Positions 8,077 to 58,691 of a DNA stretch of 64,000 bases are shown in pieces (the stretch's first letter is position 1; every line of letters begins with the position of its first letter). The stretch spans positions 1,674,001 to 1,738,000 of the forward strand of contig NZ_CP046980.1 of assembly GCF_030408395.1 (NCBI RefSeq), in the 5' to 3' direction. The translations under genes were made by a program, and so were the position numbers. This DNA comes from Corynebacterium aquatimens (lineage in GTDB: Bacteria > Actinomycetota > Actinomycetes > Mycobacteriales > Mycobacteriaceae). The notes beneath the pieces are model-generated. The model did not search any database. It saw nothing but the letters and a program-made list of their open reading frames with translations, and had not been told where the DNA came from.

Positions 8077-8953
8077 CGCTTGACTCCTTCACTTCAATTC
8101 CTGCAAACAGATCAGTCTCTGGAAGCGGGGATTCCACGCGCGTGCGGGCTAGCTCAAATTCTTCGGTGGGCCACACTTCGGCTTGGACTTCCACGGGGCT
8201 TGCAAGGAAGGCCCCGGCCGGATCAATCTGGGTCGCGTGTGCGGTCAGCGCCTCCGCGCGCTGCCCGAAGTAGTCCGCGCACTGGATCTGCGTGGTCACG
8301 CGCTCCATGATGTCGGCGCGCCCCTCTTCCCAGCGCTTAATCATGGGTTCGTATGGGCTCGACTTCCCTTCGTCGATAAGCCGCTCATGCAAAAGCTTCA
8401 TGCGCTTGTAGACAAAGCCGTGCGTGTAGTACATCTTTAGCGGCGTCCAGGGCTCGCCGGCTTCTGGGGCGTAGGACGCGTCACCGGATTTCTCCCATGC
8501 GACCATCGAAATCTCATGGACTTTGAGGTGATCCGGGTGGGGGTACCCGCCGTTTTCGTCGTACGTAATGATGACGTGCGGCTTGAAATCACGAATCCGC
8601 GCGACAAGATCACGCGAAACCGCGTCCGTATCCGCCAACGCAAAGCATCCCTCGGGCAGCGGCGGCAGCGGATCCCCCTGCGGCAGACCGGAGTCCACAT
8701 ACCCCATCCACTCATGCTCGACTCCCAGCGCGGATGCTGCGCGCGCCATCTCCTCACGGCGAATCTCCGTCATCCGCTCAATCACCCCCGGGCGATCCAT
8801 CGCCGGGTTCAAAATGTCGCCCCGCTGGCCGCCCGTACACGTCAACACCTTGACGCGGTGGCCCTCCGCGGCGTATTTCGCCATCGTCGCCGCACCCTTC
8901 GACGATTCATCGTCCGGGTGCGCATGGATAGCCAATAAGCGAAGTCCCGTCAC
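8069..8953 (-). CDS. mca: Mycothiol S-conjugate amidase
   Basis: Zinc amidase that cleaves mycothiol S-conjugates to a mercapturic acid (exported) and GlcN-Ins (recycled), a detoxification route special to actinobacteria. About 294 aa. The metal-binding 'AIHAHPDDES' lies at the N-terminus and 'YPHPDH' further on. GTG 8953 gives the usual N-terminus and has GGAGAGG about 12 bases upstream; TTG 8965 sits directly against that site and is less likely. One copy of the 11-mer repeat described in the findings (8371-8381) lies in this gene. Confidence 0.94.
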   Translation of the reverse strand: MTGLRLLAIHAHPDDESSKGAATMAKYAAEGHRVKVLTCTGGQRGDILNPAMDRPGVIERMTEIRREEMARAASALGVEHEWMGYVDSGLPQGDPLPPLPEGCFALADTDAVSRDLVARIRDFKPHVIITYDENGGYPHPDHLKVHEISMVAWEKSGDASYAPEAGEPWTPLKMYYTHGFVYKRMKLLHERLIDEGKSSPYEPMIKRWEEGRADIMERVTTQIQCADYFGQRAEALTAHATQIDPAGAFLASPVEVQAEVWPTEEFELARTRVESPLPETDLFAGIEVKESSDD

Positions 8954-9038
8954 AAGACTTACCAACCTCTCCGTCCACTCACGGTTTAAAGGGGGTTACA
9001 GTTGAATGTGGTTCATGTTACTCAGGAAGGGTTTTCAT

Positions 9039-9530
9039 ATGAGTAATCAGCGTCCTAGCTCCCGCTCCGCGTCCCCGCGTACGAGCTCCCGCCCCGCTTC
9101 ACGGTACGGCACCGCCAAGCCGTCGGCCTTAGACGAATTCACGGGTAAAGCAATGGTGATCACCACCGCATTACTCCTGATTGCGCTGGTAGTTTTCGGG
9201 GTGCGCCTTTTCCTTCAGCGCGACGACAATCCCGTCACCGCATCGTTTATTTCGCACGAGCGTATCGACGAATCCACGTCGCGCGTATGGATCGACGTTG
9301 AGCGCAAAAACCCTAACGTTCCGTCGTACTGCATCGTGACCTCTCTCAACTACGAAAAAGCTGAAGTCGGACGCCGCGACGTCATGCTGCCGGCGGGCGG
9401 CGAAAAATCCCAGCGCATGGCCGTGGACATTCCCACCCGTGATCTACCTGTATCTGGCAAGGTCTACGGCTGCTCCACCACCATCCCGTTCTTCCTCGAC
9501 CCTGAGCAGAGCTACACCCAGGCGCGCTAA
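9039..9530 (+). CDS. DUF4307 family membrane protein
   Basis: 163 aa: a Ser/Arg-rich cytoplasmic N-terminus, one membrane segment at about residues 40-60 ('MVITTALLLIALVVFGVRLFL'), and an extracytoplasmic C-terminal domain with two cysteines ('SYCIV', 'YGCST'). It matches DUF4307, whose gene lies between mca and greA in related genomes. AGGAAGG ten bases before ATG 9039 fixes the start. Function unknown. Confidence 0.85.
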   Translation: MSNQRPSSRSASPRTSSRPASRYGTAKPSALDEFTGKAMVITTALLLIALVVFGVRLFLQRDDNPVTASFISHERIDESTSRVWIDVERKNPNVPSYCIVTSLNYEKAEVGRRDVMLPAGGEKSQRMAVDIPTRDLPVSGKVYGCSTTIPFFLDPEQSYTQAR

Positions 9531-9624
9531 CGGCAAACCTGCGCGACCTGCTCGGGCGCACAAGGCCCCGTGGTAGCATCCATAATCTGAAAAGAGCAAT
9601 TGAACGGTAGAAAGAGGACACCTC

Positions 9625-10143: not shown

Positions 10144-10216
10144 CTCACGCGCACACATAGATCATCAACCGATCACCAATAAAGATCACCACAAGATCAC
10201 CGTAAGGATCATCACT

Positions 10217-10864: not shown

Positions 10865-10907
10865 CGCTTATCGACGAGGAGTCTTTAAGACTCACACGAG
10901 TTACAAA

Positions 10908-17570: not shown

Positions 17571-20500
17571 TCATTCAACCGGGGCGAGATCGAACATGGC
17601 GGCCAGGAATTGGCTGATCCAATCCAGCAAAGCTTCGTCGCGAAGCGAAGGCTTGCCCGCGCCTTGGCCCTCCTTGGGAATGGGCACGGTGATGGCTTGG
17701 GCAGTAGCGCGGTAGGTCGCAGACGGGTAGAGGCGTTTGAGGCGCACCTGCTTGGAATCGGGCAGGTCCACGGGGTGGAAGCGCAGTCGGGTGCCTTGGA
17801 CAGTAATGTCGGAGACTTTCGCCAGTTTCGCAGCGTGGCGGACCTTGGCCACGTGGAGGAGACGCTGGACTTCCTCCGGCATGGGGCCGTAGCGGTCGGT
17901 CATTTCCTCAACAACCTTGGCTAGCTCGTCATCGTTCTTCGCGGCGGCGAGCTTGCGGTAGGTCTCCAAACGGAGGCGCTCAGAGTTGATGTACGTCTCC
18001 GGAATGTGGGCATCGACGGGGACATCAATGCGGATTTCCTTCGGGCCCTGATCGGTGGCATCGATCACCTCACCGCTGCTAAGCGCCTTGTATGTGTCCA
18101 CGGCCTCCCCGACTAGGCGCATGTACAGGTCAAAGCCCACACCGGCGATGTGACCGGATTGTTCCGCGCCTAACACGTTGCCGGCACCCCGCATTTCTAG
18201 GTCCTTCTGCGCCACGGCCATGCCGGCACCCAGCTCATTGTTCTGCGCGATGGTGGCCAGCCGGTCGTACGAAGTTTCGGTGAGCGTGATGTCTTTCGGG
18301 TACAGGAAGTAGGCGTAACCGCGCTCACGCGAGCGGCCCACGCGGCCGCGCAGCTGGTGAAGCTGGGATAGACCCATGTTTTGAGCATTCTCCACGATCA
18401 GCGTGTTGGCGTTGGCAATGTCCAGGCCTGTTTCCACGATCGTGGTACACACCAAAACATCGAACTCACGGTTCCAGAAACCTTGGACGGTGGTTTCCAG
18501 CACCTGCTCACTCATTTGCCCGTGGGCCACCACAATGCGCGCCTCCGGAACGAGGTCACGTAGGTGGCGGGCGGTTTTTTCAATGTCGGCGACCTTGTTG
18601 TGGATGTAGAACACCTGGCCGTCGCGGAGCAGCTCGCGGCGAATCGCGGCGGCAATTTGCTTGTCTTCCTGCGGGCCCACGTACGTCAGAACCGGGTGGC
18701 GGTCCTCCGGCGGGGTGAGGATCGAGGTCATCTCACGAATGCCGGTGAGGCTCATTTCCAGGGTTCGCGGGATCGGCGTCGCGGTCATCGTGAGCACGTC
18801 CACGTGGGCCTTCAGCGCCTTGATGTGCTCTTTGTGTTCCACGCCGAAGCGCTGCTCCTCATCAACAACAATGAGGCCCAGGTTCTTCCACGCCACGCCA
18901 GTCTGAAGGAGGCGGTGGGTGCCGATCACGATGTCCACGGAGCCGTCGGAAAGCCCCTTGACGATCTCTTTGGCTTCTTTTGCCGTCGTGAAGCGCGAAA
19001 GCTCGCGGATCTCCACGCCGAAACCGTCCATGCGCTGGGTGAAGGTAGCGAAGTGCTGCTGGCACAGAAGCGTCGTGGGCACGAGCACGGCGACCTGTTT
19101 GCCGTCTTGGACGGCCTTGAACGCCGCACGCACGGCAACTTCAGTTTTGCCAAAGCCCACGTCACCAACGATGACGCGGTCCATCGGCACAGGTTTTTCC
19201 ATGTCCGTCTTCACCGCGTCGATCGCTGCGAGCTGATCCTCGGTTTCCGTAAACGGGAAGTTATCTTCCATCTCCATTTGCCAGGGGGAATCCGCGGCAA
19301 ACGCGTGGCCCGGTGCGGCTTGTCGCTTGGCGTAGAGCTGCACGAGCTCGCCGGCGATCTCACGCACGGCGGCGCGCGCCTTACGCTTGGTCGCCTTCCA
19401 GTCGCTGCCGCCCATTTTGCTTAGCGACGGCTGCTCGCCCCCGGAGTATTTACTCAACAGGTCCAGGGATTCCATTGGCACCCACAAGGTATCGTTCGCG
19501 CCACCGCGTTTCGACGGCTGGTATTCCAGCACGATGAATTCTTTGCGCGATTTCTCCCCGCCCATTGCCACGGTGCGTTCCGCCATTTTGACAAAGCGCC
19601 CGATGCCGTGGGTGTCATGCACAACGTAGTCGCCGGGCTTCAGGGCCAGCGGGTCCACGCGGTTGCGGCGCTTTGCGTGTCGACGCTTCCCGCCGGCGAT
19701 GTCCCCCACCCTGTTGCCGGTGACATCGGTTTCAGTAACGACGACGAGCCCCGGTCCCGGGAATGACAACCCGGCGTGGGACACGGCCTGGTACAAAGTG
19801 ACCGCGCCGTCCACGGGAGTTTCACCCGCAGAAGCAATGTGCGCAGAGACCCCGTTTTCACGTAAACGCTCAGCGGTTCGGTCAATCGTGCCCCGAGCTG
19901 GGGCGATGAACGCAGCGGTGCCGCCACCGGAGATGTGCAGTTTCAGCTGGCCATACAGGGACTCAATGAGGTTCGGATCGCCCTTTGGCGCTGGCCCGGG
20001 CTCATAATCGAGCGGCAACGTTTCTTCATCAGAGGCCACGAACATGCCGGGTGGGGCAAAGGTCCACCACGATGACCCAGCCTCGGTCGTGGAGACCTCC
20101 AGGGATTCAAAGGAACGAAACGAGCTTGCAGAGACGTCCAACCCTTCCACGGCGACCGGGCCTTCCGCGCCCATGGCGGCAGCTTCCCACCCGGCCTCCA
20201 AGAACTCCTGGTCTGTAGCTTGCAAATCCGCGATGCGCGTACGGACTTTTTCCGGGTTGGTCACTAACACCACCGACCCCGCCGGCATGAGGTCCGGCAA
20301 CACTGCGTATGCCTGATCATCACGCCCAGATACAAGCGCCGGGGCCAGCGCTTCCATCCCGTCCGCATGGGTGCCCGTGGCAATCCGGCTGAGCATCTCC
20401 ACCAACGTCCGGTTTCCTGGGTATGCCCGGGATAGTTCATCGGCGTGCGCTGAAATGGCATCGTCGATAAGCAATTGCCTCGCTGGGTGGATCTCCACCG

Positions 20501-27357: not shown

Positions 27358-27487
27358 GCGCCCGATGTAGCGAAACGAAACACACGGGTGCCGCGATGTC
27401 TTAATATCTACAAAGCGCAACACGCGCACCAAGAAGCGCACGCTTGCTTATCGACGGCCGAATTCTTGCTGATTCCAAAGGAGCCAC

Positions 27488-29803: not shown

Positions 29804-29822
29804 GTCTCTAGGATGGGTGAAC

Positions 29823-35851: not shown

Positions 35852-36262
35852 CGATAAGCATGTGTCAAGCTCCCGCAGATCGCCCGGAATCGCGACTGCC
35901 TTGCGTCCCGCCTCCTCGATGGCAGCGATGATGCGGTCCGCGTCCTCTTGTTCCTCGGGCAGATACGCAATCGCGACATCTGCGCCTTCACGGGCGTACG
36001 CCACCGCGGTGGCCGCGCCGATGCCCGAGTCCCCACCGGTGATCAACGCCTTGCGGCCTTCGAGCTTGCCAGACCCTACATAGGAATCCAGCCCAATGTC
36101 TGGTTCACTACGCATCTGCGTGTCCAGGCCGGGGTTGTTCTGCCGGCCTTCCTTGGGGAATTCTTTTGGGTACTTCGTGCGTGGATCAATAAGTGTCATG
36201 CCAGCCCAGCCTACGCGCAATTGTTTACCTGCCCGGTGCAGCGACTAGCCTTGGTAAACACT

Positions 36263-45581: not shown

Positions 45582-46790
45582 TTAAACGAAAGCGGAGTGC
45601 CCAGTCACAGCGCGACCCACGATGAGTGAGTTGATGTCGTAGGTTCCCTCGTAGGTGTACAGCGCTTCCGCGTCCGCCATCATCTTAGACAAATCGTATT
45701 CGGTGAGAATGCCGTTTCCGCCCGCGAGCGCACGGCCAACCGCAGCGGACTCACGCGCCAGGCGGGTGGTCGTCGCTTTGGCCATCGCCGCCTTCGGCAT
45801 ATCCAACAGACCACGTTCCTGCAGCTGCGCAATGTGAGCCATCATGCCCAGGGATGCCGATGCGTTTCCTAGAATCCGGGCGAGCGATTCCTGCACCAGC
45901 TGGAACTTAGCCAAGGGTCGGCCGAATTGTTCGCGCTTCAACGCGTATTCGCGAGCCTTATCAAAGATCCCTAGCTGCAAGCCCGCGCCCTGCCATGCCA
46001 CCCACGCACGGGATGTGCAGAGGTAGGTGTTCAGATCCGCAAAGGATTTCACACCCTCAATGATGTTTTCTGCGGGGATCTCCACATTGTCAAAGGTCAT
46101 GTCCGCGTTTTGCATGATGCGCAGCGCCAGCTTGCCGCTGATCTTCGACGTGCGCACGCCCTCACGGTCGTTTTCAACCAGGAACGCTTTCACCGTGTGG
46201 TCTTCGGTGTCTCGGGCGAACACGATTGTGAAATCAGCAAACGTACCGCCACCGATCCACCGCTTCTTACCGTTGATCACCCACCCGTCGTCGGTGCGCT
46301 GCGCCGACGTGGCCAACCCACCCGCAACATCGGATCCATGATCAGGTTCGGTGAGCGCGAAGCACCCCACCTTTTCAAACCTGCGCAGCCCCGGCAGCCA
46401 CTTCTCGCGTTGGGCGTCCGAGCCCATCCCATTGATGACGCCAATGACAAGCTCATTGTGAATGCCAACGAGCGTCGAGAACGACACGTCTGCTCGCGTG
46501 ACTTCCGCGTACACAAGACCACGAAACAGGCGCGAGGTATCGGACAGCTCGATTTCCCCGAGCCCGTGCTCGGCCAGCAGCGGCAACAGATCGAAGGGGA
46601 ATTCCTCACGGTCCCAGTACTCACCGACCACTGGGCGAATTTCGGTCTGAAGAAACTCGTGGATTTCCTGCAGCTTCGCCCTCTCATCGTCGCAAAGCAT
46701 GTCCGCGACAAGCAGGATATCCGCGTGGGGGACCGGAATTCCCTCTAAGTGTGCGCCGAGGGGTGAATCAGTGGGAAGAATGGGTGGCAT
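45582..46790 (-). CDS. Acyl-CoA dehydrogenase
   Basis: 402 aa. FAD enzyme that introduces the alpha,beta double bond. 'CFALTEPDHGSDVAGGL' and 'KKRWIGGGTFADFTIVFAR' are the FAD/substrate motifs; the C-terminal 'YTYEGTYDINSLIVGRAVTG' contains the catalytic Glu in the glutaryl-/crotonyl-CoA-type position (YEGT). The chain-length preference is unknown. AGAAGGA precedes ATG 46790. Last gene of the same-strand cluster with the hydratase and thiolase upstream. Confidence 0.92.
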   Translation of the reverse strand: MPPILPTDSPLGAHLEGIPVPHADILLVADMLCDDERAKLQEIHEFLQTEIRPVVGEYWDREEFPFDLLPLLAEHGLGEIELSDTSRLFRGLVYAEVTRADVSFSTLVGIHNELVIGVINGMGSDAQREKWLPGLRRFEKVGCFALTEPDHGSDVAGGLATSAQRTDDGWVINGKKRWIGGGTFADFTIVFARDTEDHTVKAFLVENDREGVRTSKISGKLALRIMQNADMTFDNVEIPAENIIEGVKSFADLNTYLCTSRAWVAWQGAGLQLGIFDKAREYALKREQFGRPLAKFQLVQESLARILGNASASLGMMAHIAQLQERGLLDMPKAAMAKATTTRLARESAAVGRALAGGNGILTEYDLSKMMADAEALYTYEGTYDINSLIVGRAVTGHSAFV

Positions 46791-46837: not shown

Positions 46838-47614
46838 TTAGGAATGCGTGAATTTTGCTTCACGCTTTTCGACGAACGCTTCCATGCCCTCTTTCTGATC
46901 ATTGGAGGAGAACAAGGCGTGGAAGGTGCGGCGCTCAAACAGAAGGCCCTGGGACAAGCTCATCTCATCCACCGCGTTGATTTGTTCCTTGATTAGTGAG
47001 GTGGCCAGGAAGGACTTCGACGCGATGGTCGTGGCCATTTCCAGGACCTCATCCATGAGGGAATCCCCTGGGACAACGCGGGCGACGAGGCCGCTGCGCT
47101 CCGCTTCCTCGGCATCCATTTGGCGGCCGGTAAGGCACATTTCCATGGCCTTGGCCTTGCCGATAGCCCGGGTGAGGCGCTGCGATCCACCCATGCCCGG
47201 CGTGACACCCAGGTTCACCTCGGGCTGGCCGAACTTTGCTTTGTCAGAGGCAACGATGATATCGCACATCATCGCGAGCTCGCAGCCGCCGCCCAGAGCG
47301 TAACCGTTTACCGCCGCGATAATCGGCGTGCGCGCTGCGGTCAGCGCCTCCCATCCTGCGAACCAATCGAGGGTGTACATTTCCGTCGCTGACTTCGAGG
47401 CCATTTCTTTAATGTCCGCGCCCGCGGCAAACGCGCGGCCTTCGCCAGTAATGACGATTGTGCCGATGCCGGAGTCCTCATCGAATTCCTTCACTGAGGC
47501 CGTGACTTCACGCATCGTGTCATTGTTCAGCGCGTTCAGCGCCTTCGGGCGGTTCAGCGTAATGATGCCCACGCGATCGCGGGTTTCCGTGAGGATGTTG
47601 TTGTACTCCGTCAT
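46838..47614 (-). CDS. Enoyl-CoA hydratase
   Basis: 258 aa crotonase. '[13 protein letters not shown]' (oxyanion hole), '[21 protein letters not shown]' with the first catalytic Glu region and '[20 protein letters not shown]' with the second. Hydrates trans-2-enoyl-CoA, the step after the dehydrogenase. AAAGGACAACACTC precedes ATG 47614. Spacing of ~47 bases to the dehydrogenase supports an operon. Confidence 0.94.
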
Positions 47615-47674: not shown

Positions 47675-48895
47675 TTAGGCCTCAAGCAGCAGTGCTTCGC
47701 CCTGGCCGCCGCCACCGCATAGCGCCAGCCCGGCGCGAGAGGCGTTGCCTGCTGCGATCTGGTGCGCGGCATGGACGATGAGGCGTGCACCTGAAGCACC
47801 AATGGGGTGCCCCATTGCGATTGCGCCGCCGTGTGGGTTGATGCTGTCTTGTTCCACCCCGAGTTCTTTGGCGGAGGCCACGATGACGGCTGCAAACGCT
47901 TCATTGATCTCAATGTGATCGAGTTGGTCGACGGTCCAGCCCTCCCGGTCGAGGGCCTGGCGCAGTGCTAGTGCCGGTTTGATCTGCAACGACGAATCGT
48001 CCCCAGCGATTTGCCCGGGTGAGCGCAGCGTCGCTAGAACTTTCCAGCCTTTCGCCTCAGCGTTTTCACGTGTGGTGAGGACAACCGCCGCCGCACCGTC
48101 GGTAAGCGGCGAAGAATTGCCAGCGGTGATGGTGCCGTCTTTTTCAAACGCTGGGCGTAGTTTCCCAAGACTTTCCGGGGTGACGTCGCCGCGCACGCCC
48201 TCGTCAGTGTCAACCACAGTGTCGCCCTTACGGGTCACTACCGTGACCGGCGTGATTTCAGCGGCGAACGTTCCGTTGGCCGCAGCCTCGTGGGCGCGCT
48301 GGTGGCTCAATGCCGCGCAGCGGTCTTCGTCCTCGCGGGATGCGGGGTAGGCCTCGCGCGCGAAGTCTTCCGCCAAGGCGCCCATGGAATTGCCCAGTTC
48401 AGCGTCCGTCAATCCGTCGTACGCCATGTGGTCAAGCATCTCTGAAGAGCCATACTTGATCCCTTTGCGCACGTGAAGCAGGTGCGGCGCATTCGACATG
48501 GATTCCATGCCACCAGCAACCACTACGTCTGCCTCGCCGCAACGGATGATGCGGGCCGCGTTAATCACGGCTTCCATCCCGGATAGGCAAACTTTGTTCA
48601 CGGTGGAGGTGTGCGCTGTTCGCCGCACGCCACCAGCGATGGCTGCCTGCTTGGCGGGATTCTGCCCCACTCCGGCTTGGAGGACCTCACCAAGAATCAC
48701 AGCATCGACCTCATCGCCGTGTATCCCGCCTTGGGCAAGCGCGGCCTCAATAGCCAATCCGCCGAGCTGCGGCCCCGTAAAGGGAGTAAGCCCGCCCAGC
48801 AATTTCCCAAACGGTGTGCGCGCGGCACCGACGATGACAACATCAGCTGCGCCCTTATTTGCACTGTTAACTGCACCGTCTACTTTTCCCTGCAT
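47675..48895 (-). CDS. Acetyl-CoA C-acetyltransferase (thiolase)
   Basis: 406 aa. 'STVNKVCLSGMEAVINAA' holds the acyl-enzyme Cys, 'HIEINEAFAAV' the active-site His region, 'GGAIAMGHPIGASG' and 'LALCGGGGQGEA' the second Cys. Cleaves or forms acetoacetyl-CoA-type substrates. Residues 1-24 are a short polar extension. ATG 48895 with GAAAGGTGAG upstream. Together with its neighbours it makes a beta-oxidation-like set, but a 3-hydroxyacyl-CoA dehydrogenase is absent. Confidence 0.94.
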   Translation of the reverse strand: MQGKVDGAVNSANKGAADVVIVGAARTPFGKLLGGLTPFTGPQLGGLAIEAALAQGGIHGDEVDAVILGEVLQAGVGQNPAKQAAIAGGVRRTAHTSTVNKVCLSGMEAVINAARIIRCGEADVVVAGGMESMSNAPHLLHVRKGIKYGSSEMLDHMAYDGLTDAELGNSMGALAEDFAREAYPASREDEDRCAALSHQRAHEAAANGTFAAEITPVTVVTRKGDTVVDTDEGVRGDVTPESLGKLRPAFEKDGTITAGNSSPLTDGAAAVVLTTRENAEAKGWKVLATLRSPGQIAGDDSSLQIKPALALRQALDREGWTVDQLDHIEINEAFAAVIVASAKELGVEQDSINPHGGAIAMGHPIGASGARLIVHAAHQIAAGNASRAGLALCGGGGQGEALLLEA

Positions 48896-48934
48896 GGACT
48901 CACCTTTCTGCTGCATAACTATGGTTTTTCGGAC

Positions 48935-49999
48935 TTAGGTGTCGGCTTGAGGGGTGAAGGCGGGTGGTTCAAACCGACCGTCGTCAAGCGGGGTGAGAAT
49001 CCCACTGACCACGTCGGCGGGGACCTCCTCGAGTGAGCCGTACGTCCACTTCGGATTACGGTCTTTATCGATGATCTGGGCGCGGATGCCTTCCTTGAAC
49101 TCTGGGTGAGCCTGCATGTTCATGCTCATCCAGAACTCTTGCGTCAGTGCCTCTTCCAAGGTCATGTCCGCCGCGCGCTTCAGCGTGTGCTCCGTCACTT
49201 TGATGCCCAGCGGCGAGTTACGCTTCATGGCTTTCAGCGGCGCCTTCGACCAATGGTCCTCCCCGTGCGTGGCCTGCAATTCTTCGAGCGCCGCGAGAAC
49301 CTCCTCGGCGGTGTCTAAACTGTAGACCTCAACCATCTCTGCCCGCGCGTCACCGAAGCCTCCCTGTGGCGTCACCGCAGCCTTGTCGATCAGCGACACG
49401 TCGCCCGTTTGCGCGAGCTCCGCCACGAGGCCCTCGAGCGCGTCCGCGGGAACATAGGTATCCGCCAAGCCTGCTTCAAGCGCCTCAGCTGCACCAACGT
49501 GCAGGCCCGTAAAGCCCAAGTGTTTACCTAAATTGTCCGGCGCGTGCGCCAACAAGTAGGAGCCACCCACGTCTGGGGAGTACCCAATGCTGACCTCCGG
49601 CATACCAATGCGCGAATCATCAGTCACGATGCGGTGCGAACCATGGGCCGAAACACCAATGCCGCCGCCAAGCACGATCCCGTTCATGATGGCCACGTAC
49701 GGCTTTGGGTAGTGCTTGATCAGCGAGTTGAGCTCATACTCCGCCTTCCAGAACCGCGCCGCATTGCGCCCGTCCCCCACGTCGTTGTACAGGTACGCAA
49801 TATCGCCGCCCGCGCACAGCCCGCGCTCCCCCGCGCCGCGAAGGATCACCAGCTCCACGCTGTCATCCTCCGCCCACGCGCCAAGCACGCGGGTCATTTC
49901 ATCGATCATCCCCTGGGTAAGCGCGTTCAGCGCCTTCGGCCGGTTAAGCGTAATCACCCCGGCACGTCCCTCCACTGTGGACAGCAGCTCTTCAGTCAC
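48935..49999 (-). CDS. 3-hydroxyisobutyryl-CoA hydrolase-like (ECH/HIBYL family)
   Basis: 354 aa. Crotonase fold, with the longer C-terminal ECH_2 domain of HIBYL-CoA hydrolases: 'LCAGGDIAYLYND', 'GIVLGGGIGVSAHGSHRIVTDD', 'MPEVSIGYSPDVGGSY' and a C-terminal 'LTQEFWMSMNMQAHPEFKEGIRA'. In valine breakdown it releases 3-hydroxyisobutyrate from its CoA ester. GTG 49999 has AGGAGG upstream. Paralogue of the gene at 54172-55182. Confidence 0.9.
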   Translation of the reverse strand: MTEELLSTVEGRAGVITLNRPKALNALTQGMIDEMTRVLGAWAEDDSVELVILRGAGERGLCAGGDIAYLYNDVGDGRNAARFWKAEYELNSLIKHYPKPYVAIMNGIVLGGGIGVSAHGSHRIVTDDSRIGMPEVSIGYSPDVGGSYLLAHAPDNLGKHLGFTGLHVGAAEALEAGLADTYVPADALEGLVAELAQTGDVSLIDKAAVTPQGGFGDARAEMVEVYSLDTAEEVLAALEELQATHGEDHWSKAPLKAMKRNSPLGIKVTEHTLKRAADMTLEEALTQEFWMSMNMQAHPEFKEGIRAQIIDKDRNPKWTYGSLEEVPADVVSGILTPLDDGRFEPPAFTPQADT

Positions 50000-51517: not shown

Positions 51518-51537
51518 CGCTCCCGATGAAGGAACAC
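51495..51537 (+). other. Strong hairpin at the sqdB/sqdX junction
   Basis: GTGTTCCTTCATCGGAGCG (51495-51513) pairs with CGCTCCCGATGAAGGAACAC (51518-51537): 19 pairs with one bulged base, loop CTAA. The sqdB stop codon is in the loop and an in-frame ATG (51526) in the 3' arm. No T tract follows, so it is not an ordinary terminator. Confidence 0.85.
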
Positions 51538-51552
51538 GAAAGCAAAAGCGCC

Positions 51553-52710
51553 ATGCGCATTTCCCTTTTCACCGAGATCTTCCTGCCGAAGATCGACGGC
51601 GTGGTCACCCGCGTGACCCGCACGGTCGAGCAGCTCGCGGAGCTCGGCCACGATGTGCAGATCTTTGCCACGGATTCGGCCGCGCCAAAGGAGTTCGCGG
51701 GCTTCCCCGTGGAGACCGTGCCCTCGATTCCGCTGTACAAAATCTACCCGGAGATCAAAGTCGGCGTGCCGATGCCGAGCGTCTCGCGCCGACTCAAAGA
51801 GTTCCAGCCAGACATCGTGCACGCGGTCAACCCTGTCTGGTACGCGGGGTACGGCGCGCTGCTTACGCGCCGCCACGGGATCCCGCTGATCGCGTCGTTC
51901 CACACTGACGTGCCCAGTTACGTTGTTGACCTTGGCATTGGTTTCGTGCGCCGCCCGTCGATCGCCCTGATCCGCGGCCTCCACAACCTCGCGGAGATGA
52001 ACCTGGTCACCTCCGGGCCGATGATGGACACGGCGGCGGAATACGGTTTTAAAAATGTTGAGTTGTGGCCGAAGGCCGTCGATACGCGTGGCTATCACCC
52101 CAGCAAGCGCACGGCGGCAATGAGGCACATGCTTAGCGACGGCCACCCCGAAGCGCCCCTAGTTCTTTTCGTGGGTCGGATTAGCGCCGAAAAGAATATC
52201 GCCCGGCTGAAAACGATCATGCCGAAACTGCGCGAACGCCTCCCCGGCGCGCGACTGGCGTTTGTGGGCGAAGGCCCCCAGTACGAAAAGATGCGGCAGG
52301 AATTCGACCCCGCATACACGCATTTCACCGGGTACATGACGGGCGAACCGCTGGCTGAAGCGTTCGCGGCCGCGGACGTCTTCGCGTTCCCCTCGCTCAC
52401 GGAAACCTTGGGGCTGGTTGCACTGGAGTCATTCGCATCCGGTGTCCCGGTGGTCGGATCGAACGCGGGCGGCATCCCCTTCGTCATCGACGACGGAAAA
52501 ACCGGGCTCCTCGTCGACGCCGACGCCAGCGACGACGAGTGGGCCAACGCCCTGGCCAGCGTACTGTCCGACCCGGGCAAGCGCGAAGAAATGTCCCGGG
52601 CCGCGCGCGCAGAAGCCGAGAACTGGTCGTGGCGCGCAGCAACGGAAAAACTCGTCGACTACTACTCGCGTGTCTGCGACGCGCGCCCGAGCAGACGGGC
52701 GCGCGGGTAG
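51553..52710 (+). CDS. sqdX: Glycosyltransferase family 4, sulfoquinovosyltransferase SqdX-like
   Basis: 385 aa. GT-B fold: N-terminal 'RISLFTEIFLPKIDGVVTRV', acceptor-binding 'LIASFHTDVPSYVV', and the C-terminal donor site 'VLFVGRISAEKNIARL', 'FPSLTETLGLVALESFASGVPVV' with the E-x7-E motif. The layout and 'FHTDVPSY' match cyanobacterial SqdX, which transfers sulfoquinovose to diacylglycerol; a PimB'/MgtA-type mannosyltransferase is the main alternative, made less likely by the sqdB neighbour. ATG 51553 is preferred; ATG 51526 lies in the hairpin. The 3' end carries a GC hairpin (52681-52704). Confidence 0.82.
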   Translation: MRISLFTEIFLPKIDGVVTRVTRTVEQLAELGHDVQIFATDSAAPKEFAGFPVETVPSIPLYKIYPEIKVGVPMPSVSRRLKEFQPDIVHAVNPVWYAGYGALLTRRHGIPLIASFHTDVPSYVVDLGIGFVRRPSIALIRGLHNLAEMNLVTSGPMMDTAAEYGFKNVELWPKAVDTRGYHPSKRTAAMRHMLSDGHPEAPLVLFVGRISAEKNIARLKTIMPKLRERLPGARLAFVGEGPQYEKMRQEFDPAYTHFTGYMTGEPLAEAFAAADVFAFPSLTETLGLVALESFASGVPVVGSNAGGIPFVIDDGKTGLLVDADASDDEWANALASVLSDPGKREEMSRAARAEAENWSWRAATEKLVDYYSRVCDARPSRRARG

Positions 52711-52721: not shown

Positions 52722-54161
52722 CTAGCGGATTTCCGCGGGGTTCTTGCGCACCGGCAAGATCTTCGGGCGCACGCCCGCGATCTCCTCGACGATGCGGACC
52801 ACCTGGTTGGAGTACCCGAACTCGTTGTCGTACCAGACGTAGAGGACAAGGTGGTTGCCCGAAACGATCGTCGCTAAGCCATCAACGATGCCCGCGTGCG
52901 TGGTGCCAACGAAGTCGGTGGAGACAACGTCCGGGGACTGGATGTAGTCGATCTGCTGGCGCAGGGAAGAGTCCGTGGAGACGCGGCGCAGGTAGTTGTT
53001 CACGTCGTCGCGGTCGACTTCTTGGTTCAGCTCCAAGTTGAGCACCGCCATGGAGACGTCCGGGGTGGGCACGCGGATGGCGTTGCCGGTGAGCTTGCCG
53101 GCGAACTCCGGAAGGGCCTTGGCCACGGCCTTTGCGGCACCGGTCTTGGTGATCACCATGTTCAGCGCGGCAGCGCGACCACGGCGCGGGCCAGAGTGGT
53201 AGTTGTCCGCCAGGTTCTGGTCATTGGTGTAGGAGTGAACTGTTTCCACGTGGCCGAACTTCACGCCCCAGCGGTCGGAGACCACCTTGAGCACCGGCGT
53301 GATCGCGTTGGTGGTGCACGACGCAGCGGACAGGACGCGGTCCTGCTCCGAGTCGTCGATAGTCGCGTGGTTGATGCCGTAGACGATGTTCTTCACATCG
53401 CCCTTGCCCGGCGCGGTGAGCAGCACGCGCGCCACGCCCTTGGACTGCAGGTGCTGGGACAGACCCGGGCGGTCGGTCCAGCGACCGGTGTTGTCCACCA
53501 CGATCGCGTCATTGATGCCGTAGGCCGTGTAGTCGATCGAGGCCGGGTCGTTGGAGTAAATCATCTGGATCGGGGTGCCGTTGGCCCAGATGATCTCATT
53601 TTCATGATCAACGCTGATCGTTCCGTTGAACGCGCCGTGCACGGAGTCGCGGCGAAGCAGCGAGGCGCGCTTCACAATGTCGTCGTCGCCCTTCTTACGC
53701 ACAACGACGGCACGCAAGCGCACGCCGCCGTACTGCGCCTCACGGGAGATCAAGATGCGGGCGAGCAGACGGCCGATGCGGCCGAAACCGTACAGCACCA
53801 CGTCGTGCGGCGCGCGGTGGCTGTCCCCGCTGATCACTTCAGCGAGCTCTTGCTCAAGGAATTCTCGCAGCTCCACGCCCTCGGTGCGCGAGTAGTTTTT
53901 GGCCAGACGCCCCACGTCGATGGAGCTCGTGCCCAAGTTCATCGTCGCCAGCTCACGCAGGATCGGCAGGGTCGCCTCCAGCGGCAGCTCACGCTCGACC
54001 ACGCGGCGCGCGTAGCGGTGCGCCTTGATCACATCGATGTCGGTCATGCCCACCAGAATTCGCCCGTAGATCGACGTCACCGTGTTGTGCTCACGGTGGA
54101 GGTAGCTGATCAGCGGCAGCATCTCCTGGGCCTGGGAAAGCTTCTTATTCCAATCGTCCAT
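52722..54161 (-). CDS. gapX: Glyceraldehyde-3-phosphate dehydrogenase, long GapX/GapB type
   Basis: 479 aa, longer than the 335-aa glycolytic enzyme by a ~130-residue N-terminal extension ('MDDWNKKLSQAQEMLP', 'SIYGRILVGMTDIDVIKAHR'). The Rossmann motif 'YGFGRIGRLLARIL', catalytic 'SAASCTTNAITPVL' and 'WYDNEFGYSNQVVRI' are intact. The length and extension match the second, gluconeogenic-type GAPDH of C. glutamicum (GapX/GapB). ATG 54161. Convergent with sqdX, with 11 bases between the stops. Confidence 0.93.
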   Translation of the reverse strand: MDDWNKKLSQAQEMLPLISYLHREHNTVTSIYGRILVGMTDIDVIKAHRYARRVVERELPLEATLPILRELATMNLGTSSIDVGRLAKNYSRTEGVELREFLEQELAEVISGDSHRAPHDVVLYGFGRIGRLLARILISREAQYGGVRLRAVVVRKKGDDDIVKRASLLRRDSVHGAFNGTISVDHENEIIWANGTPIQMIYSNDPASIDYTAYGINDAIVVDNTGRWTDRPGLSQHLQSKGVARVLLTAPGKGDVKNIVYGINHATIDDSEQDRVLSAASCTTNAITPVLKVVSDRWGVKFGHVETVHSYTNDQNLADNYHSGPRRGRAAALNMVITKTGAAKAVAKALPEFAGKLTGNAIRVPTPDVSMAVLNLELNQEVDRDDVNNYLRRVSTDSSLRQQIDYIQSPDVVSTDFVGTTHAGIVDGLATIVSGNHLVLYVWYDNEFGYSNQVVRIVEEIAGVRPKILPVRKNPAEIR

Positions 54162-54171
54162 GCCCTCAAGG

Positions 54172-55182
54172 CTAGCCAAGGACCGCGCGGTAGTGCCCAG
54201 GGTCCGGCTGGGGCGCGAATTTCGGCGCGTTATCCTTGTCCACGAGCACCGCACGCACGCCTTCGACGAAGTCCGGCTCGCGCAAGATCACCCGTTGGAG
54301 CTTCTCTTCATTGTCCAGAGCCCCGCGCAGGTCGACCTTCTTCGGGTCGTTCGCGAGGATCAGCTCGGCGGTCGCCACCAGCGATGACGGAGAGGCTCCC
54401 TCGCAATGCTTATCGACGAGTTCTTTCAAACTCCCTCCCACCTCTTCCACGTTGCCGCGGATCTGTGGCCACGACCCGGTGAAGGTCTGCTCGATCACGC
54501 CGTAGTGCTGGGCGAGTTCAGACTCCCCGGGCTCGGCGAACGGGAAATCCGTGTCGTTGCCGGAGGGGTCCGCACCTTTGATGAGCGCCTGGCGTAGCTC
54601 CCCCAACTCTTCCGCGGATCCAACGAGGTGGGTGGCCAGGCCGGTGTCCATCATGTCGTCGGCGCTGAGCCGGTAGCCGGTGAGCGAGATAAACGCCGCC
54701 AGGGCCTGGCTGGGATGGCCTGGTAGACGCTGAAGCAGGTGGGTCATGCCCACATCGACGAAGTAGCCGATCTTCATCTCCGGCATGGCGGCGAACGCGT
54801 CGCGCGTGACCACTCGGTGGCTGCCGTGCGCGGTGAGCCCGAGCCCGCCGCCCATGATGACGCCGCTCATGAGGCTGATGACGGGTTTGGGGTAAGTGGC
54901 GATGAGGTAGTCCATCTCGTACTCGGCGTCGAAGTAGTTTTCGACGGCCTCGATGTTGCCGTCGATAAGCTGCTTGCGCGCAGCACGAACGTCGCCGCCG
55001 GCGCAGAATTTCTCGCTGGAGGACTCGATGATGACCTGGGTGATGGAGTCGTCCTCGCGCCAACTCCGAAGCGCCGCAGTGATGTCGGCAATCATCTGCG
55101 CACTGAGCGCGTTGAGCACTTTCGGACGGTTGAGTGTGATCACGCCGGTGGCGTTGCGGGTTTCGATAATCGTCTCGTCCAT
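54172..55182 (-). CDS. Enoyl-CoA hydratase/isomerase family (HIBYL-CoA hydrolase-like)
   Basis: 336 aa. 'FCAGGDVRAARKQ', 'GVIMGGGLGLTAHGSHRVVTRD', 'MPEMKIGYFVDVGMTHLL' and a long ECH_2 C-terminal domain resemble the gene at 48935-49999. ATG 55182 is chosen over the alternative start 27 bases upstream. It ends 10 bases before the gapX start and could be cotranscribed with it. Two copies of the 11-mer repeat (54408-54418 and 54960-54970) lie in this gene. Confidence 0.88.
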   Translation of the reverse strand: MDETIIETRNATGVITLNRPKVLNALSAQMIADITAALRSWREDDSITQVIIESSSEKFCAGGDVRAARKQLIDGNIEAVENYFDAEYEMDYLIATYPKPVISLMSGVIMGGGLGLTAHGSHRVVTRDAFAAMPEMKIGYFVDVGMTHLLQRLPGHPSQALAAFISLTGYRLSADDMMDTGLATHLVGSAEELGELRQALIKGADPSGNDTDFPFAEPGESELAQHYGVIEQTFTGSWPQIRGNVEEVGGSLKELVDKHCEGASPSSLVATAELILANDPKKVDLRGALDNEEKLQRVILREPDFVEGVRAVLVDKDNAPKFAPQPDPGHYRAVLG

Positions 55183-55315: not shown

Positions 55316-55337
55316 CTCATTTCCGAGGAGATTAGAG

Positions 55338-56015
55338 ATGACAACCACCCTGACCGCCGAAACGCTGTCGCGCCCGATGCCGCTCCCGCTGTCGGTGGAG
55401 CTCAAGGAAGCCACCGCCGCAACCCACGACACCGCCGAGAAATCCACCTTCATGACGGACCTCATGCGCGGCGAGTTGGCGTACGCGGACGTGGTCAACC
55501 TGACGTCGCAGTATTGGTTCATCTACTCCGCGCTCGAAGAGGCCGTGCGCCGCACCTCGGCCACCCCGGCTGTGGCGTCTGTCGCCGATCCGCGGATCGA
55601 GCGTCTGTCGGCCCTCGAGCACGACCTGGCAGAGATGATCGGCGCGGACTGGCGCGAAGTCATCTCCCCCACCCCGGCCACCCAGCGCTACGTGGCGACA
55701 CTGAATTCTCTCGGCGCCGCGCAGGCCGCCTCGGTGGTCGCCCACCACTACGTGCGCTACTTGGGTGATATCACCGGCGGCCAGGCGATTGCCCGCATGC
55801 TGGCCGACGCTTACGAGATCCCGGCGGAGCAGCTCACCTTTTACGACTTCGCGGCCATCGGCAAGACCCCTCCCTACCGCAAGGCCTACAAGGCCGCGCT
55901 TGACTCCCTACCCATCGATGCCGACGAACGCGAGGAGCTTCTCGACGCCGCCCGCGAGGCCTTCGCCTGCAACACCGCCGTCTTCAACGACCTAGCGACG
56001 CTTAACGACGCCTAA
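55338..56015 (+). CDS. hmuO: Heme oxygenase
   Basis: 225 aa. Opens heme to biliverdin, releasing Fe(II) and CO. The proximal ligand is His30 in 'ATAATHDTAEKSTFM', and the distal helix is 'YLGDITGGQAIAR' (residues ~141-153). The spacing and length match HmuO of C. diphtheriae. GAGGAG precedes ATG 55338. The DtxR-like boxes upstream indicate iron control. Its neighbour on the right is the heme uptake locus, so acquisition and degradation are linked here. Confidence 0.96.
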   Translation: MTTTLTAETLSRPMPLPLSVELKEATAATHDTAEKSTFMTDLMRGELAYADVVNLTSQYWFIYSALEEAVRRTSATPAVASVADPRIERLSALEHDLAEMIGADWREVISPTPATQRYVATLNSLGAAQAASVVAHHYVRYLGDITGGQAIARMLADAYEIPAEQLTFYDFAAIGKTPPYRKAYKAALDSLPIDADEREELLDAAREAFACNTAVFNDLATLNDA

Positions 56016-56465: not shown

Positions 56466-56492
56466 TCACTTCCCTAGGATTTTCGTTTTAGA

Positions 56493-56511
56493 TAAAGTTA
56501 GCCTAACCTGA
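56493..56511. promoter_or_regulatory. DtxR-like box upstream of htaA
   Basis: TAAAGTTAGCCTAACCTGA matches TTAGGTTAGCCTAACCTAA at 16 of 19 positions, the best such site in the window. It lies between divergent htaA and the small membrane protein gene. Confidence 0.85.
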
Positions 56512-56596
56512 ATACTAATCCAAAAGGTTGACATCTCAAATGTTGATCTCGAACCCCACGATAGTACACACCCTCACGTCCGAAAGGATCCGCCTC

Positions 56597-58648
56597 ATGA
56601 AATGGACCAAGCTCGCCGCCGTCTCCGCCGCAGCCTCGCTGACCGTGATGGGCGGCGCGCTTCCCGCTGTCATTGACGTGGCCGCACCGCTGGCCGGGGC
56701 GCAAGAGGCTGGCGCCGCTAACACCCACCGCCAGGTACAAAACGGCACCATGACCTGGGGAGTCAAGGAATCCTTCCGCGGCTATGTCGTGGGCAACATC
56801 GCCAAGGGCGCGATCTACGTCAACGGCCAAGAAGTGGCCAGCAAGCAATCCGGCCGCAGAGCCGCACCATTCAACTTCACGGCCACAAAGTCCAGCTTGT
56901 CCTCCCCCACCTCCGGCGTGATTGCGTTCAATGAGAGCGTCCGCTTCATCGGCCACAATTACGGTAACGGTCCGTTGCTCGACTTGGAACTGAGCAACAT
57001 CAGGCTGCAGTTCAACGGCAGCTCCGCCGAATTAGTTGTGGATTACAAGACAGTGGAGTTCAAGGGCATGGACACGAAAGCCATCCCCGACCCGCCGCGC
57101 ACCGGCAGCGACAAGGTTCTGGCCACACTGTCCCTAAGCGGCGCCGACTTTTCCAAGGACCGCGTCACGGTCAACGGCACCAACGTCACGCTCACGCCTT
57201 TCGGGCGCGAGATCTTCGCGAACTTCTACGACGAGAGCCGATCTGACCTCGACGACCTGACCGCCACGTTCTCTGTGAGCGATACTGCAGGTGCTCCGCC
57301 AGCAGGCCCGTCCATCTCCGGTGGTGGCGGCGCCGGCGGCGGTGCAACCCGCTCCAACGCCAAGGATGGACCGGCCGCCCTTTTGGGCACGGTCAACGAC
57401 ACGCTTACCGAGATCAACGGCCTGATCGTCAACTCCAACAACGTCCTGGACAACTCGGAGAAGCTGTTCCGCCCGCGCGGAGCGGCGGCAGCCCGAGGCA
57501 GCGGTGGCAGCGGCACTACAGCCAGCGGTGCAGGCGCAACCGGAGGGACTGCCGGGGGCGGAGCACCTTTCTCGGCCGCTGATGTCGGACCAGTGTCCAC
57601 GAAATCCGGCTCGCCCGTCGGTGGTGGCGCCGGCGCTGGCGGCGCTACCGGCAACACCGGTGGTGGTGCCAGCGCACCAAGCGGCAACGCGGGTGCAGGC
57701 GGCGGAAACGCCGGCACCGCCAAGACTGCCACCACAGCAGCTGGCGGCGGCAGCGGATCCGGGGATGTCTGCAAAGACGACGGCTCCCGCGGCGTGCAAA
57801 GCGCCAAGGCCGCTTGGGGTGTGCGCCAGTCCTTCCGCAACTACATCCGCGGCACCATCGCCAAAGGCAAATGGCAGCTCAGCGGAGTGGGCGACACCAA
57901 CAACGCCTTTCAGTGGACCGGTAACTCCGGTGCGGTCAACGTGAACAAGAAATCCGGCACGATTCTGTTCCCCGGCACCATCCGTTTTACCGGCCACAAC
58001 GGCATCCTGGACACCCAGTTTTCCAACATGGAGATCCAGTTCGCCGGTAACTCCGGCCAACTCATCTTGAACGTCAAGTCCAACGATGTCGAGGGCAACC
58101 CGCACGACTACGGCCGCGTTGTCCTGGCGAACCTCGCTTTCAGCCAGCTCGATGTGTCCGAAGGTTCAGTGTCCGGCACCGCATCCACCTCGCTGACAGC
58201 CGCTGGCGCGGAAGCGTTCGCCCAGTTCTACCCGACAGGCGATGCGCTCGACCCGATCTCATTTACCGCACAGCTGGGCGGCAAGCCCAACTGCGCCCAA
58301 GGTCAGGGCGGCAGCGTCTCCGGCGCGGCCACCGGCCAGGGTGGTTCGGCTGCTCAAGCTGCCGCCCTGCGCAGCGGTGGGTCCGCAGGCGGCGAATCCG
58401 CGTCCGCCGTTACCGCAGCTGACAGTGGCGACTCAGCCGACGGCAGCGTGTTCGACGAGCAAGACGGAATCGACGCCACGAGCGAAAGCAAGGGCACCGG
58501 CACCAGCAAGTTCAACATCAAAAACGGTAACGCCGACGACGGCGTGACCGGCGGGTGGGACGACTCCGCAATCGCACAAACGATCACCTTGCTGGCCTCC
58601 TTCCTCGCTTCCGGCGGCGTGCTCGCGCGGTTCGCGGTGCGCAACTAG
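56597..58648 (+). CDS. htaA: Heme-binding surface protein HtaA, two HtaA (CR) domains
   Basis: 683 aa. Signal peptide (residues 1-36); first CR domain ~45-215 ('SFRGYVVG' with Tyr63, 'VRFIGHNYG' with His120); Gly/Ala/Ser-rich linker ~235-390; second CR domain ~395-560 ('SFRNYIRG' with Tyr416, 'IRFTGHNG' with His467) flanked by Cys392 and Cys566; Ser/Gly tail and C-terminal membrane segment. The Tyr and His positions correspond to the heme ligands known in C. diphtheriae CR domains. AAAGGA precedes ATG 56597. First gene of the hta-hmu operon; a DtxR-like box lies 86 bases upstream. Confidence 0.95.
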   Translation: MKWTKLAAVSAAASLTVMGGALPAVIDVAAPLAGAQEAGAANTHRQVQNGTMTWGVKESFRGYVVGNIAKGAIYVNGQEVASKQSGRRAAPFNFTATKSSLSSPTSGVIAFNESVRFIGHNYGNGPLLDLELSNIRLQFNGSSAELVVDYKTVEFKGMDTKAIPDPPRTGSDKVLATLSLSGADFSKDRVTVNGTNVTLTPFGREIFANFYDESRSDLDDLTATFSVSDTAGAPPAGPSISGGGGAGGGATRSNAKDGPAALLGTVNDTLTEINGLIVNSNNVLDNSEKLFRPRGAAAARGSGGSGTTASGAGATGGTAGGGAPFSAADVGPVSTKSGSPVGGGAGAGGATGNTGGGASAPSGNAGAGGGNAGTAKTATTAAGGGSGSGDVCKDDGSRGVQSAKAAWGVRQSFRNYIRGTIAKGKWQLSGVGDTNNAFQWTGNSGAVNVNKKSGTILFPGTIRFTGHNGILDTQFSNMEIQFAGNSGQLILNVKSNDVEGNPHDYGRVVLANLAFSQLDVSEGSVSGTASTSLTAAGAEAFAQFYPTGDALDPISFTAQLGGKPNCAQGQGGSVSGAATGQGGSAAQAAALRSGGSAGGESASAVTAADSGDSADGSVFDEQDGIDATSESKGTGTSKFNIKNGNADDGVTGGWDDSAIAQTITLLASFLASGGVLARFAVRN

Positions 58649-58691
58649 TGGAAGCAAAAAGGCGTCGATAAGCGAAAGGCTCGTGTTGAAG

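What the first reader, a model, noticed from the sequence alone, without database searches (positions are those of the whole stretch)
8371..58673. Thirteen exact copies of the 11-mer CGTCGATAAGC, far above chance, in several frames and between genes
The sequence shows CGTCGATAAGC at 8371, 20462, 27925, 34394, 37198, 43551, 54960 and 58663 on the + strand, and its complement at 10866, 27446, 29912, 33294 and 54408 (left ends). With ~60% GC and both strands of 64 kb, about 0.03 copies are expected (my hand estimate). Three copies are intergenic (10866, 27446, 58663); the coding ones give VDK, LID or LST depending on frame and strand, so protein selection does not explain them. Flanking bases differ, so it is not a longer mobile repeat. 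Such density (one per ~5 kb) and exactness resemble DNA uptake sequences or sites for a chromosome-organising or recombination protein. I know of no described motif of this kind in Corynebacterium.
Basis: partly seen in the sequence, partly recalled or inferred. Interest (0 to 1): 0.87.

Follow-up and report, generated by a model that had tools for sequence, protein, structure and literature searches.

The report
Corynebacterium genome-wide DNA self-tag motif
Most Corynebacterium genomes examined carry hundreds to almost two thousand copies of a short two-part DNA word, which in related species has changed the same letter at the same places, much like the tags by which meningitis bacteria recognise DNA of their own kind; whether it works as such a tag has yet to be tested at the bench.

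Summary
The 13 exact copies are real (0.02 expected). The 11-mer is the commonest form of a two-part motif, CGTCG-N2-AAGC: 41 in the window (1.2 expected), 1,447 in the genome, 719 forward and 728 reverse (reversed-letter control 48). One-mismatch forms sit near chance (300 against 276), codon use does not explain it (236 against 19 after synonymous shuffling), and no replication-strand bias was seen. Of 151 Corynebacterium genomes 104 hold 280-1,891 copies, 47 hold 134 or fewer; 8 of those 47 carry a dialect, CATCG-N2-AAGC. Sampled genera of the same family lack it. Between two species of different dialect, 27 of 31 otherwise intact sites show the one-base switch in place (18% background, p = 1e-16). 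One insertion-element island has none and four plasmids have few. Best reading: a DNA uptake sequence used in natural transformation, probably through a Tad pilus with ComEA and ComEC. Pattern and concerted switching are shown; uptake and receptor are inferred. The competence genes searched for occur in motif-free species too, so the reader protein is unknown.

The parts
2050..2060 (+). core site, spacer AG
   Evidence: inside predicted gene 1469..2863-
2131..2141 (-). core site, spacer TC
   Evidence: inside 1469..2863-
4523..4533 (+). core site, spacer AG
   Evidence: outside predicted genes
6756..6766 (-). core site, spacer TC
   Evidence: inside 5944..6918+
8371..8381 (+). core site, spacer AT (exact 11-mer)
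   Evidence: inside 8069..8935-
10866..10876 (-). core site, spacer AT (exact 11-mer)
   Evidence: intergenic
17636..17646 (+). core site, spacer CG
   Evidence: inside 17571..21140-
18944..18954 (+). core site, spacer GA
   Evidence: inside 17571..21140-
18984..18994 (+). core site, spacer TG
   Evidence: inside 17571..21140-
19419..19429 (-). core site, spacer CT
   Evidence: inside 17571..21140-
20462..20472 (+). core site, spacer AT (exact 11-mer)
   Evidence: inside 17571..21140-
24296..24306 (+). core site, spacer GA
   Evidence: inside 23428..24675+
25290..25300 (-). core site, spacer CG
   Evidence: inside 24721..26217+
26793..26803 (-). core site, spacer CC
   Evidence: inside 26221..27198+
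27446..27456 (-). core site, spacer AT (exact 11-mer)
   Evidence: intergenic
27925..27935 (+). core site, spacer AT (exact 11-mer)
   Evidence: inside 27545..28843+
29912..29922 (-). core site, spacer AT (exact 11-mer)
   Evidence: inside 29817..30386+
31467..31477 (-). core site, spacer TG
   Evidence: inside 31078..31785+
33186..33196 (+). core site, spacer AC
   Evidence: inside 32401..33684-
33294..33304 (-). core site, spacer AT (exact 11-mer)
   Evidence: inside 32401..33684-
34394..34404 (+). core site, spacer AT (exact 11-mer)
   Evidence: outside predicted genes
36757..36767 (-). core site, spacer AC
   Evidence: inside 36236..37930+
37198..37208 (+). core site, spacer AT (exact 11-mer)
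   Evidence: inside 36236..37930+
39637..39647 (+). core site, spacer AC
   Evidence: inside 38861..39727-
40242..40252 (-). core site, spacer CT
   Evidence: inside 39724..40842-
43205..43215 (+). core site, spacer TT
   Evidence: inside 42429..43628-
43551..43561 (+). core site, spacer AT (exact 11-mer)
   Evidence: inside 42429..43628-
46688..46698 (+). core site, spacer CA
   Evidence: inside 45582..46790-
46864..46874 (-). core site, spacer AA
   Evidence: inside 46838..47614-
48097..48107 (+). core site, spacer GT
   Evidence: inside 47675..48916-
48979..48989 (+). core site, spacer TC
   Evidence: inside 48935..49999-
52131..52141 (-). core site, spacer CT
   Evidence: inside 51526..52710+
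52869..52879 (+). core site, spacer CT
   Evidence: inside 52722..54179-
54408..54418 (-). core site, spacer AT (exact 11-mer)
   Evidence: inside 54172..55182-
54960..54970 (+). core site, spacer AT (exact 11-mer)
   Evidence: inside 54172..55182-
55937..55947 (-). core site, spacer AG
   Evidence: inside 55338..56015+
56000..56010 (-). core site, spacer TT
   Evidence: inside 55338..56015+
58663..58673 (+). core site, spacer AT (exact 11-mer)
   Evidence: intergenic
58886..58896 (-). core site, spacer GT
   Evidence: inside 58683..59759+
60879..60889 (-). core site, spacer AG
   Evidence: inside 60832..61641+
63853..63863 (-). core site, spacer CT
   Evidence: outside predicted genes

Best explanation
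CGTCG-N2-AAGC (and CATCG-N2-AAGC in some species) is a DNA uptake sequence of Corynebacterium. A surface DNA receptor, not yet identified, binds the two fixed blocks across a free two-base spacer; DNA that carries the motif is preferentially pulled in, probably by a Tad-type pilus, handed to ComEA and ComEC, and recombined into the chromosome with DprA and RecA. Because motif-bearing fragments are taken up and recombined more often, intact sites spread and near-misses are replaced, so the motif piles up in shared chromosomal DNA and not in newly arrived mobile DNA. When the receptor's specificity changes, the same drive rewrites existing sites, which gives dialects. Shown here: abundance, both-strand balance, two-part specificity, loss in some lineages, dialects, in-place concerted switching, depletion in sampled mobile DNA, presence of Tad, ComEA, ComEC and DprA genes. 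Inferred: uptake, the receptor, the pilus role, the drive.
For: 1,447 cores, 719:728 by strand, control 48; 41 in the window against 1.22. All 27 one-mismatch core forms together 300 against 276 expected while the core is 294 against 13.4 in 504 kb. Synonymous shuffles: 236 against a mean of 19.1, maximum 27; 57 of 294 sites intergenic against 66 if uniform. 104 of 151 Corynebacterium genomes at 280-1,891 and 47 at 8-134 with nothing between; 9 of 151 carry 625-1,337 CATCG copies, 8 of them among the 47. 40 of 43 named Corynebacterium records hold 440-1,637 copies of CRTCG-N2-AAGC. In-place dialect switch 27 of 31 (background 53 of 293, p = 1.3e-16), reverse direction 25 of 31 (background 45 of 117, p = 2e-6), and 13 of 15 in a second pair that shares one genome (p = 3.5e-8). 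Sites kept 61-70% between G004 and G006 against 18-22% for nearby windows. 0 sites in a 20 kb insertion-element island (11.5 expected, P = 1e-5); 3 CRTCG sites in 50 kb of a C. striatum plasmid against 22.5 at chromosomal density (P = 4e-7). ComEC in 151 of 151, DprA in 151 of 151, TadA-like ATPase in 148 of 151; complete tad cluster and comEA-comEC in the window's genome. Flp/Tad-dependent transformation is known in the actinobacterium Micrococcus luteus (PMC4322843, title and passages), and DUS dialects are known in Neisseriaceae (PMC3630211, passages).
Against: No uptake or transformation was measured, and none of my ten library searches surfaced a description of natural competence in Corynebacterium. 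ComEC and DprA occur in all 39 motif-free genomes, ComEA and ComEC in 16 of 16 motif-free com loci read, and the tad pilins in 9 of 9 motif-free tad loci read, so machinery presence does not track the motif. Seven of 112 motif-bearing genomes lack an intact TadA match (G021, G075, G092, G101, G112, G113, G119; mostly draft assemblies, but G112 has two contigs). No column set in TadE- or Rv3654c-like minor pilins stood out as the dialect reader: other tad proteins separate the dialects as well. No ComP-like receptor was identified. Sites sharing between G111 and four relatives was not significantly above background (0.11-0.25 against 0.06-0.08, p 0.07-0.38).
Confidence: 0.7

Rival explanations
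1. A Chi-like signal that tells an end-processing nuclease-helicase to stop degrading and start recombination inside the cell.
For: Dense, short, non-palindromic, chromosomal and scarce on four sampled plasmids; a change of enzyme specificity could in principle give dialects.
Against: Chi sites as I recall them are biased towards one replication direction; here 135 to 159 with either assumed terminus not significant (p = 0.18 and 0.27) and 719:728 overall. It vanishes entirely in 39 of 151 genomes, which would need loss of a housekeeping signal. Nuclease genes were not searched for.
Confidence: 0.1
2. A binding site for a chromosome-organising or nucleoid protein.
For: Spread along the sampled chromosome with near-random spacing (mean 1,563 bases, coefficient of variation 0.94); both strands; a trans-acting reader is implied by the switch of the same base at many sites.
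Against: Rewriting more than a thousand essential sites one base at a time is hard without a drive; lineages with none remain viable; sites lie in genes in several frames at about the density found between genes.
Confidence: 0.1
3. A self mark read by a defence or methylation system that spares DNA bearing it.
For: Absent from an insertion-element island and scarce on four plasmids; dialects between species.
Against: Restriction sites are usually avoided, not piled up (recalled); two blocks two bases apart do not resemble the longer gaps of type I sites (recalled). No defence-gene search and no methylation data were available.
Confidence: 0.06
4. An artefact of codon use, protein repeats or base composition.
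For: One reading frame is favoured: 141 of 236 coding sites read xxG CTT NNC GAC G on the gene strand.
Against: Synonymous shuffles give 19.1 (maximum 27 of 60) against 236; 57 sites are intergenic; reversed-letter control 48 against 1,447.
Confidence: 0.01

Closest known systems
DNA uptake sequence (DUS) of Neisseriaceae
   Same: Short non-palindromic word in about a thousand or more copies on both strands, single-base dialects that follow relatedness, loss in some relatives (PMC3630211 passages: eight variants, about 1,900 copies of the 10-mer in N. meningitidis and N. gonorrhoeae).
   Different: Gram-positive genus; two blocks with a free spacer; no ComP-like receptor found; uptake not shown. 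The DUS paper reports a required CTG core, which this motif lacks.
Uptake signal sequence (USS) of Pasteurellaceae
   Same: Abundant 9-base core, species variants; its receptor was long unknown, now predicted to be the minor pilin ComN (PMC12616744 passages).
   Different: Different sequence and phylum; Tad-type pilus genes here.
Flp/Tad pilus-dependent natural transformation of Micrococcus luteus
   Same: Actinobacterial tad cluster with TadE and TadF-like small proteins, and com genes (PMC4322843 passages).
   Different: The terms 'uptake sequence' and 'uptake signal' do not occur in that paper.
Chi, KOPS and HIP1 motifs
   Same: Dense genomic words.
   Different: Chi and KOPS are strand-biased and HIP1 is palindromic (recalled); this motif is neither.

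Membership tests
DNA uptake sequence (DUS/USS) | Hundreds to thousands of copies of a short non-palindromic word on both strands | tested here: met
   1,447 copies, 719:728, control 48
DNA uptake sequence (DUS/USS) | Dialects among related species, consistent with relatedness | tested here: met
   CATCG form in 9 of 151; clustered on a TadA tree of 67 rows, though four CATCG carriers were labelled as CGTCG there
DNA uptake sequence (DUS/USS) | Accumulates in shared chromosomal DNA, scarce in recently acquired DNA | tested here: met
   0 in 20 kb of insertion elements; 1-4 CGTCG cores per 50 kb in four plasmids. Only one island and four plasmids; the host chromosome density is known for C. striatum only
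DNA uptake sequence (DUS/USS) | Type IV-type pilus and com genes present | tested here: met
   but also present in motif-free genomes
DNA uptake sequence (DUS/USS) | Specific surface receptor (ComP, ComN or other) | tested here: inconclusive
   dialect-separating columns not special to the two tad minor pilins; no search outside tad and com loci
DNA uptake sequence (DUS/USS) | Motif raises DNA uptake or transformation | not testable with these tools
   needs the bench
Chi site | Orientation bias relative to replication (recalled) | tested here: not met
   135:159, p = 0.18; 137:157, p = 0.27 with another terminus, on 504 kb of 2.52 Mb
KOPS | Strong skew towards the terminus (recalled) | tested here: not met
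HIP1-type motif | Palindrome (recalled) | tested here: not met
   sequence shows CGTCG-N2-AAGC, not palindromic

The most novel reading that the evidence does not exclude
Corynebacterium holds a third, independently evolved uptake-sequence system, outside the two Gram-negative families where such systems are described, with a gapped motif read during Tad-pilus transformation across a mycolate outer membrane, and with a receptor whose single-base change of preference has rewritten about a thousand sites in place.
Probability: 0.6. Interest if true: 0.96.

Novelty: new variant of a known kind. Interest (0 to 1): 0.92.

Why it matters
It would predict natural transformation, with species-level self recognition, in a genus that includes common human skin, eye and nose commensals and industrial relatives, and explain which strains exchange DNA. 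Because 151 species fall cleanly into carriers, dialects and non-carriers, it makes an open question testable: how uptake specificity arises, switches and drives a genome-wide rewrite. The in-place switch between close species is a direct record of that drive. For practice, adding the right dialect to DNA might make hard-to-transform harmless species workable.

Tried and rejected
Rejected: exact 11-mer as the unit. Codon or composition artefact. Strand-skewed motif. Terminator hairpins: 8 neighbouring pairs under 80 bases against 13.6 expected, so no excess, although 4 of the 8 are inverted. Rfam on the window: two tRNAs only.

Led nowhere: PF07811 TadE model matched 0 of 151 genomes and rang only in Caulobacter among 14 controls, so it is blind to the actinobacterial form. 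ComEC length (open frame) looked longer in motif-free genomes but motif-rich ones overlap; dropped as a marker. DprA did not separate groups. Dialect-linked columns in tad proteins: TadB 9 of 252, TadC 5 of 221, TadA 4 of 369, TadE 2 of 98, Rv3654c-like 3 of 101, pilin 0 of 53, helicase 3 of 533, so no special signal. A third dialect: none seen in 20-100 kb samples of ten motif-free genomes, but with one mismatch allowed G132, G133 and G041 exceed their controls 1.5-1.7 fold; codon use may explain it, and a weak further dialect is not excluded. Structure prediction was not run. Low-count G073 (213) and G084 (159 CATCG copies) were left as intermediate.

Limits: one genome per species, so recombination could not be measured. 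The window's genome was sampled (504 kb of 2.52 Mb) for flanks, codon and strand tests; genome-wide counts are complete. Gene calls are my own hexamer scoring. The first gene of the record was taken as dnaA by reading its translation, not by a search. The table of 151 counts was copied by hand into. Named genomes came from a search with this genome's TadA and are biased to its relatives.
Full report
Observation. The window lies at 1,674,001-1,738,000 of a single 2,524,396-base contig, which holds 257 + 258 copies; the reversed-letter control gives 0.

The unit. In 464 kb of sampled DNA (twenty 20 kb stretches plus the window) the 11-mer and its sub-words top the over-represented words (101 copies, 1.05 expected). 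Substitutions at bases 6 and 7 are also enriched; the rest mostly are not. With the spacer free, CGTCG-N2-AAGC occurs 41 times in the window against 1.22 in shuffles and 719 + 728 times in the genome against a control of 18 + 30. In 504 kb, 294 cores stand against 13.4 expected, while all one-mismatch forms together are 300 against 276. Forms altered at base 1 or 2 are below expectation (6 against 16.4, 12 against 25.8); A to C at base 9 is the one clear excess (50 against 18.8). So recognition looks nearly all-or-none over nine bases.

Context. By my own gene calls (390 genes, 77% coding), 236 of 294 sites are coding, 57 intergenic and one at an edge; 66 intergenic would be expected if uniform. 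One frame holds 141 of the 236. Shuffling synonymous codons leaves 19.1 on average, maximum 27 in 60 shuffles, against 236. Spacing is close to random (coefficient of variation 0.94) without an excess of close pairs. Forks: 135 sites run with and 159 against the fork, p = 0.18; another assumed terminus gives 137 and 157, p = 0.27.

Mobile DNA. One sampled stretch, L024, has no copy in 20 kb where 11.5 are expected (P = 1e-5); its open frames read as transposases of several families (by reading). Plasmid stretches of 50 kb from C. kefirresidentii, C. striatum, C. faecale and C. comes hold 1, 2, 3 and 4 CGTCG cores and 1, 1, 0 and 1 CATCG cores. At the density of the C. striatum ATCC 6940 genome (1,262 CRTCG cores in 2.8 Mb) the C. 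striatum stretch should hold 22.5; it holds 3 (P = 4e-7). The other three host chromosomes were not counted.

Spread in the genus. Of 151 genomes, 104 hold 280-1,891 CGTCG cores (median 1,081.5) and 47 hold 8-134, with nothing between. CATCG-N2-AAGC was found by k-mer count in samples of two of the low genomes, then counted in all 151: nine hold 625-1,337, eight of them among the 47; G143 holds both forms (1,337 and 352). G073 (213) and G084 (159) are intermediate. So 112 of 151 carry one of the two dialects and 39 neither. Of 43 Corynebacterium records in the named set, 40 hold 440-1,637 CRTCG cores, among them C. striatum, C. tuberculostearicum, C. macginleyi, C. aurimucosum, C. minutissimum, C. 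mucifaciens and C. riegelii; C. mastitidis (242), C. uropygiale (172) and strain zg-331 (153) are low; six genomes of other genera stand at or below about 1.2 times their controls. In the same family, 185 genomes of 30 other genera hold at most 7 copies of the 11-mer, and 140 genomes of other genera show CRTCG cores at up to about 2.7 times the control (highest by eye G250, 449 against 168), against 20 times in the window's genome.

Concerted switching. About 100 kb around the tad locus was compared between G006 (CATCG; in the TadA tree beside C. macginleyi) and G004 (CGTCG; beside C. tuberculostearicum), 81% identical. Of 49 aligned CATCG sites in G006, 27 are CGTCG sites at the same place in G004, 3 are CATCG, and 14 differ in one to three bases and 5 in four or more. 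Where the other eight bases are intact, 27 of 31 carry G, 3 A and 1 T; among CATCG words outside sites 53 of 293 carry G (p = 1.3e-16). The reverse reading gives 25 of 31 against 45 of 117 (p = 2e-6); G143 to G004 gives 13 of 15 against 30 of 156 (p = 3.5e-8). These tests share genomes and are not independent. Of 22 switches with a readable frame in the first pair, 19 are synonymous and 3 are I to V. Sites stay sites between G004 and G006 in 61-70% against 18-22% of nearby windows; with G036 and G143 the excess also holds (p from 1e-2 to 9e-10), with G111 it does not reach significance; in motif-free G014 0 of 21, 22, 26 and 32 sites of four carriers are sites, and in G132 and G133 0 to 2 of 14 to 30. 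A trans-acting reader with a changed base preference is the simplest cause.

Machinery. The window's genome has a tad cluster (Ssd, TadA, TadB, TadC, DUF4244 pilin, TadE-like, Rv3654c-like) beside a helicase, and comEA followed by comEC. TadE-like scored below its NCBIfam cut-off (26.4 against 40), Rv3654c-like above (65.3 against 50.95). The ComEC shows only the Competence domain in Pfam. ComEC and DprA are in 151 of 151 genomes. TadA-like ATPase is in 148 of 151: the 22 full-length matches under 420 bits all lie in motif-free genomes, which I read as one deep clade; 16 other motif-free genomes have ordinary TadA and one has none, and 7 motif-bearing genomes lack an intact one. On the TadA tree of 67 rows the motif-free label needs 5 changes. 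So the motif is probably lost repeatedly while the genes stay, and the reader protein is not among those tested by presence.

Interpretation. An uptake sequence explains both strands, exactness, coding plus intergenic placement, scarcity in mobile DNA, dialects, loss and in-place switching together. Flp/Tad-dependent transformation exists in Micrococcus luteus (PMC4322843, passages). In Neisseriaceae eight dialects are described and act as barriers (PMC3630211, passages); a simulation study argues that uptake bias with mutation suffices for accumulation (PMC1939737, abstract). The uptake step itself is inferred.

Literature. Ten searches of the held open library listed nothing that describes such a motif or uptake sequences in Corynebacterium; listings and abstracts were seen, not full texts. 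The 11-mer string occurs in three papers and its complement in two, on unrelated subjects by title and abstract. Subscription journals and preprints are not held, so prior description is possible.

Noticed in passing
window 62410-63029 in ORF 61744-63201 (+): 23 copies of a 27-base tandem repeat (98% match) inside a gene whose product has an HtaA domain.
   Followed up: partly
L024 (window's genome 1,925,001-1,945,000): Insertion-element graveyard, GC 0.562, without a single motif copy.
   Followed up: partly
L011, L026, L027: AATTTCGCGAAT occurs 11 times in 464 kb, in pairs often exactly 90 bases apart; unexplained.
   Followed up: no
G112, contig 1: A motif-bearing genome (495 cores) in which both TadA and ComEC match in two pieces; perhaps losing competence, or sequencing error.
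   Followed up: no
L057 (G043) and L153 (G148): ComEA reading frames look cut or shifted near the C-terminus, one in a motif-rich and one in a motif-free genome (by reading).
   Followed up: no
L029-L038, L160, L161: The CATCG dialect has further preferences: G two bases before the core (85% of 39 and 68% of 38 sites) and C as second spacer base (69%, 66%).
   Followed up: partly
31 com loci (L049-L058, L072, L144-L163): No H.H.DH metal-site pattern was found in any of the 31 ComEC frames by a simple regular expression, so the nuclease-like domain may be missing.
   Followed up: no
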